From Clostridiaceae bacterium (GTDB lineage: Bacteria > Bacillota > Clostridia > Clostridiales > Clostridiaceae): a stretch of 8,424 bases of DNA. This document shows, piece after piece, positions 1-5,056 of this stretch. The translations under genes were made by a program, and so were the position numbers. The number at the start of each line of letters is the position of its first letter. Positions within the stretch are counted from its first letter, which is position 1. The stretch is from positions 1 through 8,424 of the forward strand of contig CABIZX010000012.1 of NCBI GenBank assembly GCA_902363375.1, read 5' to 3'. Below the pieces are notes generated by a model that was not told the origin of the DNA, ran no database searches, and saw only the letters and a list, made by a program, of their open reading frames with translations.

Positions 1-558
<558 letters not shown>

Positions 559-1560: not shown

Positions 1561-2967
1561 TTATTTTACTCTCCAAGTAGTTCCTTCTTTACTATCTAAT
1601 ACTTCTATATTCATCTCTAATAATTGTGCTCTTATTTCATCTGATCTTTTATAGTTTTTTTCTTTTCTAGCCATATTTCTTTCTTCAATAAGGGCATTTA
1701 TAAGCTTCTCATCTACTGAAGCTACTTCCTTCTCAATAATCATAAGGTTAAGAGATAAAACTTTATCAAAGTCTTCTATTAGTGTAGCTTTCTCTTTATT
1801 ATTTAATGAGCTATCTTTTATAACTTCGTTAAGCACTGTAAATGCATTAGCTATATTTAAATCATCACTTAGTTGTGCTTTAAATTTTTCTTTATATTCA
1901 CTAATAATTTCTTTGTTTATACTATCATTTTCATCTATATTAGTTAATATTGAAGCTATTTTTTTCTTTAATGCTTTATATCCATTTTGTGCATCCTTTA
2001 AACTTTCGAAGCTAAACACTAGTTGTTTTCTATATTTAGATTGTAAGCAAAAATATCTATAATCCAAAGGTGTAAATCCTTCTTCTTCAAGTCTAGACAC
2101 TGTTAAAAAGTCTCCACTTGATTTTGACATCTTACCACCATCTAATACTAAGAACTCACCATGAACCCAATAGTTTACCCATTTATGTCCTAATGCAGCT
2201 TCTGATTGAGCAATTTCATTTGTATGGTGAACAGGTATATGGTCTATTCCTCCGCAATGAATATCTATATACTCACCTAAATATTTAATACTCATAGTAG
2301 AGCACTCTAAATGCCATCCTGGGAACCCTCTACCCCAAGGAGAATCCCATTGCATTATTTGATTAGAGAATTTTGAATTTGTAAACCAAAGTACGAAATC
2401 TAGAGGATTCTTTTTATTCGGATCTATTTCTATTCTACTACCAGCCTCTAATTCATCTATACTCAAATTGGCTAGTTTTGTGTAATCCTCAAATTTGTCT
2501 ATTTCAAAGTATACATTTCCGTTTGATTCATAGGTATAGCCACGTTCTTCAAGTTTCTGAATGAATTTAATCATGTCATCTATGTGTTCTGTTGCTCTAC
2601 ATACTACTGTTGGTCTCTTTACATTTAATTTTTTGCAATCTTCAAAGAAAGCATCTTCATAAAATTTTGCAATTTCCCATACTGTTTTATGCTCACGACT
2701 TGCGCCTAAAGCCATTTTATCTTCTCCTTCATCCCCATCTGATTGAAGATGACCTACATCTGTTACATTCATAACATGTTTAACTTTATACCCTACATAT
2801 TCTAAGGATTTCTTTAATGCATCCTCAAATATATAAGTTCTTAAGTTTCCTATATGAGCATAGTTGTATACAGTAGGACCACAAGTATACATTCCAACCT
2901 TATTTTTATTTGCAGGAATAAATTCTTCTTTATTTCTAGTTAAGGTATTGTATAAATAAAAACTCAT
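1561..2967 (-). CDS. cysS: Cysteinyl-tRNA synthetase
   Basis: Cytoplasmic class I aminoacyl-tRNA synthetase (EC 6.1.1.16) that charges tRNA-Cys using ATP. It has 468 residues, the normal family length. Visible hallmarks are the N-terminal CGPTVYNYAHIGN block with Zn ligand Cys29 and HIGH-type motif HIGN (38-41). The other Zn-site residues are Cys222 (in WHLECSTM), His247 and Glu251 (in VHHTNE). The KMSKS loop is at 279-283, and the C-terminal helical anticodon-binding region contains KRSDEIR. The ATG is preceded by AAAGGAGA at a good distance. No truncation or frameshift is seen. Upstream, a leader with a cysteine-run peptide and a terminator (3085-3225) very likely controls expression. In B. 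subtilis cysS is followed by mrnC and rlmB; here the DUF1904 gene follows instead. Confidence 0.98.
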   Translation of the reverse strand: MSFYLYNTLTRNKEEFIPANKNKVGMYTCGPTVYNYAHIGNLRTYIFEDALKKSLEYVGYKVKHVMNVTDVGHLQSDGDEGEDKMALGASREHKTVWEIAKFYEDAFFEDCKKLNVKRPTVVCRATEHIDDMIKFIQKLEERGYTYESNGNVYFEIDKFEDYTKLANLSIDELEAGSRIEIDPNKKNPLDFVLWFTNSKFSNQIMQWDSPWGRGFPGWHLECSTMSIKYLGEYIDIHCGGIDHIPVHHTNEIAQSEAALGHKWVNYWVHGEFLVLDGGKMSKSSGDFLTVSRLEEEGFTPLDYRYFCLQSKYRKQLVFSFESLKDAQNGYKALKKKIASILTNIDENDSINKEIISEYKEKFKAQLSDDLNIANAFTVLNEVIKDSSLNNKEKATLIEDFDKVLSLNLMIIEKEVASVDEKLINALIEERNMARKEKNYKRSDEIRAQLLEMNIEVLDSKEGTTWRVK

Positions 2968-3084
2968 TTCATATCTCCTTTACATATTTCTCATAGTTAA
3001 TGTTTTCATAGTAGTTACTGATCTATAACTTATACTTTACATCACATCTAGTTTTCTTAGTTTAACTATATTAGTATATAATAT

Positions 3085-3111
3085 AAAAAGCCACAGAACT
3101 ATCTGTAGCTT
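3085..3111 (-). terminator. Intrinsic terminator inside the cysS leader
   Basis: On the minus strand, AAGCTACAGA (3111-3102), loop TAGT, then TCTGTGGCTT (3097-3088) form a 10-bp stem with one G-U pair. TTTTTATATT follows the stem core. It lies about 60 nt after the leader peptide stop codon and 117 nt before the cysS start. No other gene upstream on this strand needs it, which fits a conditional terminator. Confidence 0.85.
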
Positions 3112-3172
3112 AAATAACAATTAAAATTTATATAAATTATTAATTACATTATTATAGCTCAGTAGTATCTTG

Positions 3173-3217
3173 TTAAATTATACACATTCCAAAACAACAA
3201 CAACAACATCTACACAT
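3173..3217 (-). CDS. Cysteine-run leader peptide of cysS (14 residues)
   Basis: The minus-strand frame reads MCRCCCCCFGMCII and then TAA. Seven of 14 residues are cysteine, including five consecutive UGU codons at 3208-3194. A Shine-Dalgarno AAAGGAGA (3233-3226) sits 9 nt before the ATG, and a promoter lies just upstream. Position (before a terminator, before cysS) and composition match leader peptides of attenuated amino-acid operons. There, ribosome stalling on the codons of the sensed amino acid prevents termination. Its translation is likely regulatory and the peptide itself probably has no other role (inference). Cysteine-rich upstream ORFs controlling sulfur genes are known in mycobacteria and Bordetella; I do not recall one described for a clostridial cysS. 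Chance is unlikely given the five-codon run plus the RBS. Confidence 0.85.
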   Translation of the reverse strand: MCRCCCCCFGMCII

Positions 3218-3251
3218 AATAATGTTCTCCTTTAAAATAATTTATATTTAA

Positions 3252-3279
3252 ATTCTATCATATTATAATAATTTTACAA
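3252..3279 (-). promoter_or_regulatory. Promoter of the cysS leader transcript
   Basis: On the minus strand there is a -35 TTGTAA (3279-3274), a 16-bp spacer and a -10 TAGAAT (3257-3252). TG precedes the -10 one base away, making an extended -10. The -10 hexamer is identical to that of the rRNA promoter. The predicted start near 3245 gives a 5' UTR of about 28 nt before the leader peptide and about 278 nt before cysS. Confidence 0.65.
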
Positions 3280-3451: not shown

Positions 3452-5056
3452 ATGTCTATAGATATATATGTTAATGGAAATATTATATCCTTAGATAAAG
3501 AGAAAAGTTATGAAGCTTTTGCTGTAAAAGATGGTAAATTCCTAGCTGTAGGGCGTAATAAAGATATCATGTCCTTATTTCATAGTGATGAATGTAAAAT
3601 TACAGATTTGGGTGGAAATACTGTAATTCCTGGATTTAACGATGCTCATATGCATCTACTTAATTATGGATTTCAGAAAAATGCAGTTCAACTAAATAAT
3701 ATTTCATCTATAGAAGAGATGATAAAAGTTGTTAAATCTTATATTTCTAAAAATAATATTCCGAAAGGCACATATATAATCTCTAGAGGTTGGAATGATA
3801 ATTGTTTTAAGGAGAAAAGACTTCCAAACAGATATGATTTAGATAAAATTTCTTATGAGCATCCAATCATATTTTCAAGAATATGTGGTCACATTGGTGT
3901 AGTTAATTCAAAGGCTATAGAACTATTAGGCATAGATAAAATCAAGGAAAATCCTGCTGGTGGTGCTATAGACAGGAAAAATAGTATTCCTACTGGAGTC
4001 CTACGTGAAAATGCATTAAATATAGCTCTTAGTAAGGTTCCGCCTACCTCAGTTGAGGATATCAAAGCTGCACTTTGTAGTACTTTTGATGACTTAATTA
4101 AATGTGGAATAACTACTGTGCAAACTGAAGATTTAACTCATTGTAGAAATCTGCGTAATTTAATACAGGCCTATAAAGAGCTGGAGGAAGAGGGAAAGCT
4201 TCCAGTTAGAATAACTTTACAACTTTGTCTCAATACAGATGAGTTATTAAAAGAAGCCAAAGAACTTGGTTTAAAGTCTAAATTAGGTAATGACTTTATA
4301 AAAATTGGAGGCCTTAAACTTTTTCAAGATGGTTCCTTAGGGGCACGTACTGCTGCTATGATGGATAATTATGAAGATACATCTGATAATGGTATTAGTA
4401 TTTATTCACAAGAGGAATTAGATAGTTGGGTTACTAAGGGGTTTAATCAAGGGTTTCAAATTATAATTCATGGTATAGGCGATAGAGCTTGTGAAATGAT
4501 ATTAAATTCCTATGAGAAAATATCTAATGGTAGTACTGATAACCTTAGACCAGTTATCGTACATTGTCAATTTACTAATGATCTTCTATTAAATAGATTT
4601 AAAGATATTGGTGTAATAGCTAATGTTCAGCCAGCCTTTATTATGAGTGATTATCCTATAGTCGAAAAAGCTGTAGGAAAAAAACGTACTAAAAGTAGCT
4701 ATGCTTTTAATTCTATGATACAGAAGGGTATTCCTGTAGCCTTTAGCTCCGATGCTCCCATCGAAAGTTTTAATGTAATTGAAGGAATTCATGGAGCTGT
4801 AAATAGGACAGATTTAAACAATAATCCTAAGGGTGGATTTAATATTAATGAAGGTGTTACTGTGATGGATGCTTTAAAGGCTTATACAACAATACCTAGT
4901 TATATGTCATTTGATGAAGAATACAAGGGTAAAATAAAAGTAAACTATTTAGCTGATTTTATAATCTTATCCCAAGATATTACTTCTGTACCTAAAAATA
5001 AAATTAAAGATATTAAAGTTTTAGAAACCTATGTAGATGGGCGAAAAGTCCTATAG
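3452..5056 (+). CDS. Amidohydrolase family protein, YtcJ-like
   Basis: A 534-residue metal-dependent hydrolase of the Amidohydro_3 type (PF07969; B. subtilis YtcJ has similar length), predicted cytoplasmic. An N-terminal beta-sandwich segment (about 1-60) leads into the TIM barrel with the HxH metal motif GFNDAHMHL (His66, His68). Lys289 in GLKLFQDGSLGAR is the expected carboxylated bridging lysine. Later ligands are His340 (IIHGIGDRA), His371 (VHCQF) and Asp434 (FSSDAPIES). All key residues are present. The C terminus returns to the sandwich (ADFIILSQD, VDGRKVL). The ATG follows AGGTGGTGA at good spacing. Related enzymes act on amides, formamides or cyclic ureides, but the substrate cannot be predicted. 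It looks monocistronic, with a terminator right after it and a convergent gene beyond. Confidence 0.9.
   Translation: MSIDIYVNGNIISLDKEKSYEAFAVKDGKFLAVGRNKDIMSLFHSDECKITDLGGNTVIPGFNDAHMHLLNYGFQKNAVQLNNISSIEEMIKVVKSYISKNNIPKGTYIISRGWNDNCFKEKRLPNRYDLDKISYEHPIIFSRICGHIGVVNSKAIELLGIDKIKENPAGGAIDRKNSIPTGVLRENALNIALSKVPPTSVEDIKAALCSTFDDLIKCGITTVQTEDLTHCRNLRNLIQAYKELEEEGKLPVRITLQLCLNTDELLKEAKELGLKSKLGNDFIKIGGLKLFQDGSLGARTAAMMDNYEDTSDNGISIYSQEELDSWVTKGFNQGFQIIIHGIGDRACEMILNSYEKISNGSTDNLRPVIVHCQFTNDLLLNRFKDIGVIANVQPAFIMSDYPIVEKAVGKKRTKSSYAFNSMIQKGIPVAFSSDAPIESFNVIEGIHGAVNRTDLNNNPKGGFNINEGVTVMDALKAYTTIPSYMSFDEEYKGKIKVNYLADFIILSQDITSVPKNKIKDIKVLETYVDGRKVL

What the first reader, a model, noticed from the sequence alone, without database searches (positions are those of the whole stretch)
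3085..3279. Poly-cysteine leader peptide and conditional terminator upstream of cysS: a tRNA-Cys-sensing attenuator
Seen: a promoter, a strong RBS, a 14-codon frame with five consecutive UGU codons (7 Cys of 14), an intrinsic terminator about 60 nt after its stop, then cysS on the same strand. Established: trp, his and leu leaders use this arrangement, with codons of the sensed amino acid. Cysteine-rich upstream ORFs regulate sulfur genes in mycobacteria and Bordetella. Inference: low Cys-tRNA-Cys stalls the ribosome on the UGU run, stops terminator formation and raises cysS, closing a feedback loop on the charging enzyme itself. Peptide-based attenuation of a synthetase gene would be unusual in Firmicutes, which mostly use T-boxes, and I do not recall this leader being described.
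Basis: partly seen in the sequence, partly recalled or inferred. Interest (0 to 1): 0.9.

Follow-up and report, generated by a model that had tools for sequence, protein, structure and literature searches.

The report
Cysteine-sensing leader switch for cysS
In many clostridia the gene for the enzyme that loads cysteine onto its tRNA is preceded by a tiny gene encoding a run of cysteines and by a transcription-stop hairpin, an arrangement predicted to let ribosomes feel cysteine shortage and turn the enzyme up, in a bacterial group better known for a different sensor (the T-box).

Summary
Upstream of cysS on the minus strand lie a promoter-like site, a Shine-Dalgarno sequence, the 14-codon ORF MCRCCCCCFGMCII (3217-3173) and an intrinsic terminator (3111-3088). 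The same parts precede this cysS type in 28 other genomes; in one order, 23 of 57 genomes with this cysS have the poly-Cys ORF. Such ORFs are about 60-220 times rarer elsewhere in the same DNA. Terminator pairs covary, and in 27 of the 28 leaders measured the antiterminator arm lies within or just after the ORF's last codons. No T-box was found here. Best explanation: ribosome-mediated transcription attenuation by Cys-tRNA supply. The kind is known: Cys attenuators of cysS are predicted in Rhodobacterales, a His leader of hisS in bacilli. Ten searches of an open-licence library listed no description of this clostridial family. Eleven relatives carry a second terminator-like hairpin (six weak) whose 5' arm can pair with the first terminator's released arm, suggesting one switch for both. 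Regulation is untested; at equilibrium the full-length transcripts mostly favour the terminator in every state, and the predicted switch is weak in the window's own copy.

The parts
3252..3279 (-). likely promoter: TTGTAA, 16 nt, TAGAAT with extended TG
   Evidence: consensus match only; the leaders of L003 and L027 show TATGATAAAAT at the same place
3226..3233 (-). Shine-Dalgarno sequence AAAGGAGA, 8 nt before ATG
   Evidence: read; an SD-like motif by a lenient list in 29 of 29 leaders, in L028 only AGGT
3173..3217 (-). leader ORF MCRCCCCCFGMCII with stop codon
   Evidence: poly-Cys ORF control
3194..3208 (-). five consecutive UGU codons (Cys run); putative arm 1 overlaps this run
   Evidence: pairing of this region with arm 2 is not distinguishable from shuffles in the window (p 0.35)
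3156..3166 (-). arm 2, antiterminator 5' arm ACTACTGAGCT
   Evidence: p 0.028 against 500 linker shuffles
3098..3110 (-). arm 3, shared by antiterminator (with arm 2) and terminator (with arm 4)
3088..3111 (-). intrinsic terminator hairpin (arms 3 and 4), -13.4 kcal/mol
   Evidence: covariation of the stem over 16 leaders
3080..3087 (-). U-rich tail of the terminator
1561..2967 (-). cysS, cysteinyl-tRNA synthetase, 468 aa

Best explanation
The stretch 3279-3080 is very likely a ribosome-mediated transcription attenuator that is predicted to raise cysS when charged tRNA-Cys runs short. Shown by sequence: an ORF with a Cys run and an SD sequence, an intrinsic terminator, an arm that competes for the terminator's 5' arm, and the same order of parts in 29 leaders. 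Inferred: with enough Cys-tRNA the ribosome reaches the stop codon and covers arm 2, so arm 3 pairs with arm 4 and RNA polymerase stops; with too little, the ribosome stalls on the UGU run, arm 2 stays free, captures arm 3 before arm 4 is made, and polymerase reads on into cysS. In about half of the leaders the Cys-run or SD region also pairs with arm 2 better than shuffles, which would keep the switch off when the ORF is not translated, as in the trp design; this third pairing is not distinguishable from chance in the window's own leader.
For: Poly-Cys ORF far above background upstream of cysS. 29 leaders with ORF, arm 2 and terminator. Cys codons vary between UGU (124) and UGC (41) while the run stays, and the rest of the peptide varies. 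Terminator stem: 93.1% of cells paired, 5 of 9 pairs changed on both sides, 0 of 500 shuffles as high. Arm 2/arm 3: p < 0.05 against linker shuffles in 18 of 28 leaders (no correction for many tests). Arm 2 begins 13-46 nt after the Cys run and from 37 nt before to 8 nt after the ORF stop in 27 of 28 leaders measured (L029 is the exception, L086 was not reached). Masking a ribosome at the first Cys gives a mean antiterminator probability of 0.84, at the stop 0.31; shuffled linkers give a difference of 0.20 (25 rounds, highest 0.32) against 0.53. A covariance model finds the cysS leader as best match in 25 of 25 chosen genomes, 13 of them not used to build it. No T-box here. No minus-strand promoter-like site after the terminator.
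Against: No expression data. Full-length transcripts at equilibrium mostly favour the terminator in every state (mean 0.82-0.84 stalled, 0.89 at stop, 0.94 free), so the model needs the antiterminator to form first. In the window, L003, L027, L019, L021 and L024 the antiterminator probability before arm 4 hardly differs between stall and stop; for the window the energy gap opens only with a footprint of +12 or more. Arm 1:2 pairing beats shuffles in only 15 of 28 leaders and not in the window. The leader is missing in L001 and L002 and in 34 of 57 genomes of the order; 17 of the 35 without the ORF within 450 nt still have a terminator-like hairpin.
Confidence: 0.85

Rival explanations
1. The poly-Cys ORF is a stalling sensor, but of something other than tRNA charging: the nascent poly-Cys chain responds to metal, thiol redox state or sulfide, and the same arms then switch transcription.
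For: Cys runs bind metals and react with oxidants (general knowledge); the anatomy would look the same.
Against: The downstream gene is the synthetase for exactly this amino acid in every leader-bearing locus examined; the Cys run sits at the N-terminus of ORFs as short as 13 codons, so most of it would still lie in the ribosome tunnel (inference).
Confidence: 0.07
2. In the window's own lineage the switch is degenerate: the terminator simply sets a constant low level of cysS, as may be so in relatives that kept the terminator and lost the ORF.
For: Weak predicted switch in the window; 17 of 35 genomes of the order without the ORF within 450 nt keep a terminator-like hairpin.
Against: Window, L003 and L027 all keep an intact ORF, SD, arm 2 and terminator, with substitutions between them but no broken frame.
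Confidence: 0.05
3. The ORF makes a functional Cys-rich micro-peptide (for example metal-binding) that happens to precede cysS and has its own terminator.
For: The ORF has an SD sequence and is followed by a terminator.
Against: Apart from the Cys run the peptide is not conserved and its length varies from 13 to 33 codons; a plain terminator needs no arm 2, yet arm 2 is placed by the ORF's end and pairs above chance in 18 of 28 leaders.
Confidence: 0.02
4. A T-box riboswitch too divergent to be called, in which the frame is accidental.
For: T-boxes specific for cysteine precede cysS in other Firmicutes (PMC2940859, passages) and precede the other cysS type in 4 of 20 loci examined here.
Against: No T-box match in the stretch even at E 1, nor upstream of cysS in 39 loci scanned at the gathering score, 16 of which carry the leader.
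Confidence: 0.01

Closest known systems
uORFC-8-2 motif, Rhodobacterales cysS (PMC8632094, section 24 read)
   Same: Predicted ribosome-mediated attenuator before cysS with Cys codons in a short upstream ORF and a terminator.
   Different: Alphaproteobacteria; two tandem Cys codons usually at positions 14-15 and two stems, the first holding the Cys codons. Here a run of mostly 3-6 Cys near the start and arm 2 at the ORF's end. No shared model was available to test kinship.
His leader peptide before hisZ and hisS* in bacilli (PMC2965389, passages)
   Same: Leader-peptide attenuator predicted on synthetase-family genes in Firmicutes, on a duplicated gene, in place of a T-box.
   Different: Histidine; bacilli; no cysS or clostridial Cys leader appeared in the passages seen.
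Poly-Cys leader ORFs of cys operons in Actinobacteria (PMC1262725, passages; Canestrari 2020 known only from a reference list)
   Same: Cys-codon runs in short upstream ORFs.
   Different: Before biosynthesis operons, without a terminator hairpin according to PMC1262725; described as leaderless in the cited title.
Leu-rich attenuator of ilv in Staphylococcus aureus (PMC5794164, passages)
   Same: Ribosome-mediated transcription attenuation in a Firmicute, with genetic evidence.
   Different: Biosynthesis operon, leucine.
T-box riboswitch (RF00230)
   Same: Senses tRNA charging and controls synthetase genes by antitermination.
   Different: Binds tRNA directly and needs no ORF; no match here.

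Membership tests
ribosome-mediated transcription attenuator | short ORF with a ribosome-binding site | tested here: met
   (sequence only; translation itself not shown)
ribosome-mediated transcription attenuator | cluster of codons of the amino acid linked to the downstream gene | tested here: met
   Cys run before cysS; 15 against 0.07 expected
ribosome-mediated transcription attenuator | intrinsic terminator before the gene | tested here: met
ribosome-mediated transcription attenuator | antiterminator that excludes the terminator | tested here: met
   window p 0.028; 18 of 28 leaders p < 0.05
ribosome-mediated transcription attenuator | ribosome position decides between the two folds | tested here: inconclusive
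   met as a family mean; hardly any difference in the window by that measure, a gap by energy with footprints of +12 or more; full-length equilibrium mostly favours the terminator
ribosome-mediated transcription attenuator | arm 1:2 protector hairpin | tested here: inconclusive
   15 of 28 leaders p < 0.05, window p 0.35
ribosome-mediated transcription attenuator | read-through depends on amino-acid supply | not testable with these tools
   needs an experiment
T-box riboswitch | match to the T-box covariance model | tested here: not met
uORFC-8-2 motif | tandem Cys codons near positions 14-15 of the ORF | tested here: not met
   Cys at positions 2, 4-8 and 12; motif as described
mycobacterial poly-Cys ORF attenuators | no terminator hairpin | tested here: not met
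   terminator present; feature from PMC1262725 passages

The most novel reading that the evidence does not exclude
Clostridia have a separate, ancestral cysteine-sensing attenuator family for a second type of cysS. In its full form it is a relay of interlocked hairpins: when the ribosome stalls, arm 2 captures arm 3, the freed arm 4 captures arm 5 of a second terminator, and one event opens two terminators in series. The window carries the simpler one-terminator form.
Probability: 0.33. Interest if true: 0.72.

Novelty: new member of a known kind. Interest (0 to 1): 0.57.

Why it matters
It would give clostridia a ribosome-based sensor of charged tRNA-Cys on a synthetase gene, beside the T-box that the other cysS type carries in 4 of 20 loci examined from the same order and its kin. 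Two sensors for one signal, on two types of one enzyme, make it testable why a lineage uses translation or direct tRNA binding. A 2005 survey stated that no Firmicutes synthetase gene was regulated by classical attenuation (PMC1262725, passage); the hisS prediction (PMC2965389) and this family argue otherwise from sequence. The interlocked second hairpin, if it works, would be a simple way to make one switch tighter.

Tried and rejected
T-box: rejected; searches scanned 39 of the 80 loci, so 12 of the 28 leader-bearing relatives were not scanned. Chance: rejected. The leader on other genes: in 25 chosen genomes the next R1 matches have E 0.0057 or worse; the five fetched (L232-L236) have no Cys run at the matched place, the remaining weak ones were not fetched. 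L207, a weak hit in 148 genomes of another order, shows no poly-Cys ORF of 20 codons or more and was not pursued. The other cysS type: no R1 match in 31 loci and no run of three Cys codons within 600 nt upstream. More distant cysS: of 29 loci L085-L113 only L086 has a Cys-rich ORF of this kind; of 6 genomes in the order of G004 only G004 itself has it. The column tool was not used for antiterminator pairs, because alignment A1 shifts arm 2 in some rows; they were counted per sequence. That count's own-against-exchanged test for arms 2 and 3 is biased, since arm 2 was chosen as the best partner of its own arm 3; the shuffle test allows for the choice.

The second hairpin: found by eye; in 6 of the 11 leaders it folds weaker than -7 kcal/mol by itself. 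Tandem duplication alone would give part of the arm 4 / arm 5 fit; the own-against-exchanged test (-16.3 against -12.5 kcal/mol, 11 leaders including L006, L086 left out) lowers but does not remove this.

Literature: ten searches of an open-licence library listed no clostridial Cys leader before cysS. Most subscription papers are not held and supplements could not be read.

Full report
1. What is there. On the minus strand: likely promoter 3279-3252, SD 3233-3226, ORF MCRCCCCCFGMCII 3217-3173 with five UGU at 3208-3194, terminator 3111-3088, cysS 2967-1561. Added here: ACTACTGAGCT (3166-3156) pairs with AGCTACAGATAGT (3110-3098), 11 pairs with two bulges; as a hairpin of its own it folds at -14.1 kcal/mol. 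The two folds share arm 3 and exclude each other.

2. Chance. In the 80 cysS loci (1.1 million strand-bases), short ORFs with four or more Cys in a row occur 15 times within 450 nt upstream of cysS and twice elsewhere; with three or more, 19 and 9. Expected upstream from the rate elsewhere: 0.07 and 0.3.

3. Conservation. 19 of the 80 loci have the poly-Cys ORF. In the order of C. sulfidigenes, 57 of 225 genomes have this cysS type at E 1e-170 or better; 23 of the 57 have a Cys run of three or more in a short upstream ORF: 22 within 450 nt and L166 farther out. An automatic scan finds a terminator-like hairpin in 21 of those 22 (L139 falls below the cut-off) and in 17 of the 35 others. In the order of G004, 6 of 148 genomes have the cysS type and only G004 the leader. 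I analysed 29 leaders: the window, 19, and L086, L133, L136, L138, L155, L165, L166, L169, L171. Their first terminator was picked by eye; its hairpin is weak in L017 (-6.2) and L032 (-2.1 kcal/mol). L086 has six Cys in 24 but no run of three.

4. Structure. Terminator stem over 16 leaders: 93.1% of cells paired, 5 of 9 pairs with changes on both sides, 0 of 500 shuffles as high; slid versions reach at most 55.6%. Antiterminator: p < 0.05 against 500 linker shuffles in 18 of 28 leaders, window 0.028, L003 0.058. Pair types at arm 3 core position 1 are A-T 11, G-T 8, G-C 4, and at position 2 C-G 19, T-G 3, T-A 2, over 27 distinct arm combinations of 28 leaders, L029 left out because the automatic search missed its arm. 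Own arms pair at -11.2 against -8.1 kcal/mol for exchanged arms, a test that leans towards own arms. The Cys-run or SD region pairs with arm 2 at p < 0.05 in 15 of 28.

5. Geometry. In 27 of 28 leaders measured (not L029; L086 not reached) arm 2 begins 13-46 nt after the Cys run and from 37 nt before to 8 nt after the ORF stop, in ORFs of 13-33 codons. A ribosome on the Cys run would leave arm 2 free; one at the stop would cover it or have just crossed it. With a masked 30-nt footprint the antiterminator probability in a transcript ending at the terminator loop is 0.84 (first Cys), 0.67 (last Cys), 0.31 (stop) and 0.36 (free RNA), means of 29. Shuffled linkers give a stall-stop difference of 0.20, sd 0.05, highest 0.32 of 25 rounds, against 0.53. 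Against this: the window, L003, L027, L019, L021 and L024 show almost no difference, and in the full-length transcript at equilibrium the terminator mostly wins in every state. For the window, the terminator's advantage is 1.8 (stalled on the first Cys) against 5.5 kcal/mol (stop) with a footprint of +12, 2.9 against 7.8 with +15, and nearly equal (2.1, 2.5) with +9; L003 and L027 go from slightly antiterminator-favoured to terminator-favoured with +12 or more.

6. A second hairpin. Twelve leaders have a second terminator-like hairpin, found by eye. In 11 of them (not L006) arm 4 of the first pairs with arm 5 of the second more strongly (-11.1 to -22.5 kcal/mol) than the second hairpin folds by itself; in 6 of the 11 that hairpin is weaker than -7. 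Arms of one leader fit each other better than exchanged arms (-16.3 against -12.5, 11 leaders including L006, L086 left out; no permutation of 10,000 as low). Inference: when arm 2 holds arm 3, the freed arm 4 would hold arm 5, so one event would open both. Tandem duplication could explain part of the fit.

7. Specificity. Model R1 gives the cysS leader as best match in all 25 genomes that I chose because they carry it; 13 were not used to build it (E 3.4e-15 to 0.0017), though some are close kin of rows that were. Next matches have E 0.0057 or worse; the five fetched have no Cys run there. The other cysS type has no leader in 31 loci and a T-box directly upstream in 4 of 20.

8. Evolution. 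On a CysS tree of 50 rows the leader needs 9 changes (shuffled mean 16; 0 of 500 as low; at least 6 forced by starred branches) and occurs in deep, long-branched rows such as Oceanirhabdus (L054) and L086 (quick tree). Old presence with repeated loss fits but is inferred; the count cannot tell gain from loss. Around C. psychrophilum, C. frigoris and C. bowmanii one row (L006) keeps the leader while its kin keep terminators without the ORF. Of the 57 genomes, 30 also have the other cysS type (E below 1e-180); the leader is in 19 of these 30 and in 4 of the 27 with this type alone. Kin are counted apart and drafts may miss genes. It suggests an inducible second enzyme in many species; in the window's closest relatives (G001, G002) this seems to be the only cysS. 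No genome is held for the window.

9. Known or new. Leader-peptide attenuation is a known kind. A Cys attenuator of cysS is predicted in Rhodobacterales (section read), poly-Cys leaders in Actinobacteria (passages), a His leader of hisS in bacilli (passages). Ten searches listed no clostridial Cys leader, and Rfam has no family at this stretch. Hence a new member of a known kind, with a possible new variant in the two-hairpin form.

Noticed in passing
window 1-558 (-): Part of a 16S rRNA gene runs off the window edge, downstream of cysS and of a 114-aa ORF at 1497-1153 with no NCBIfam match.
   Followed up: no
L025 (upstream of 3001) and L038 (upstream of 3001): Terrisporobacter and Tissierella share nearly the same last stretch before cysS although they belong to different families, and their CysS rows are sisters; perhaps transferred.
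   Followed up: no
L004-L005, L007-L013, L034: Relatives that keep one or two terminators before cysS but have lost the poly-Cys ORF; L004, L012 and L034 keep short Cys-codon remnants without the frame.
   Followed up: partly
L016, L166, L169 between leader parts and cysS: Extra stretches are inserted after the terminator (L016, L166) or between the two hairpins (L169, gap 82 nt).
   Followed up: no
L176, L178, L180, L194: T-box directly upstream of the other cysS type: two sensors for one amino acid within related genomes.
   Followed up: partly
window 3452-5056 (+): A divergent 534-aa gene with weak amidohydrolase-type matches (hutI, allantoinase and others, below cut-off) shares the intergenic region with the leader.
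   Followed up: no
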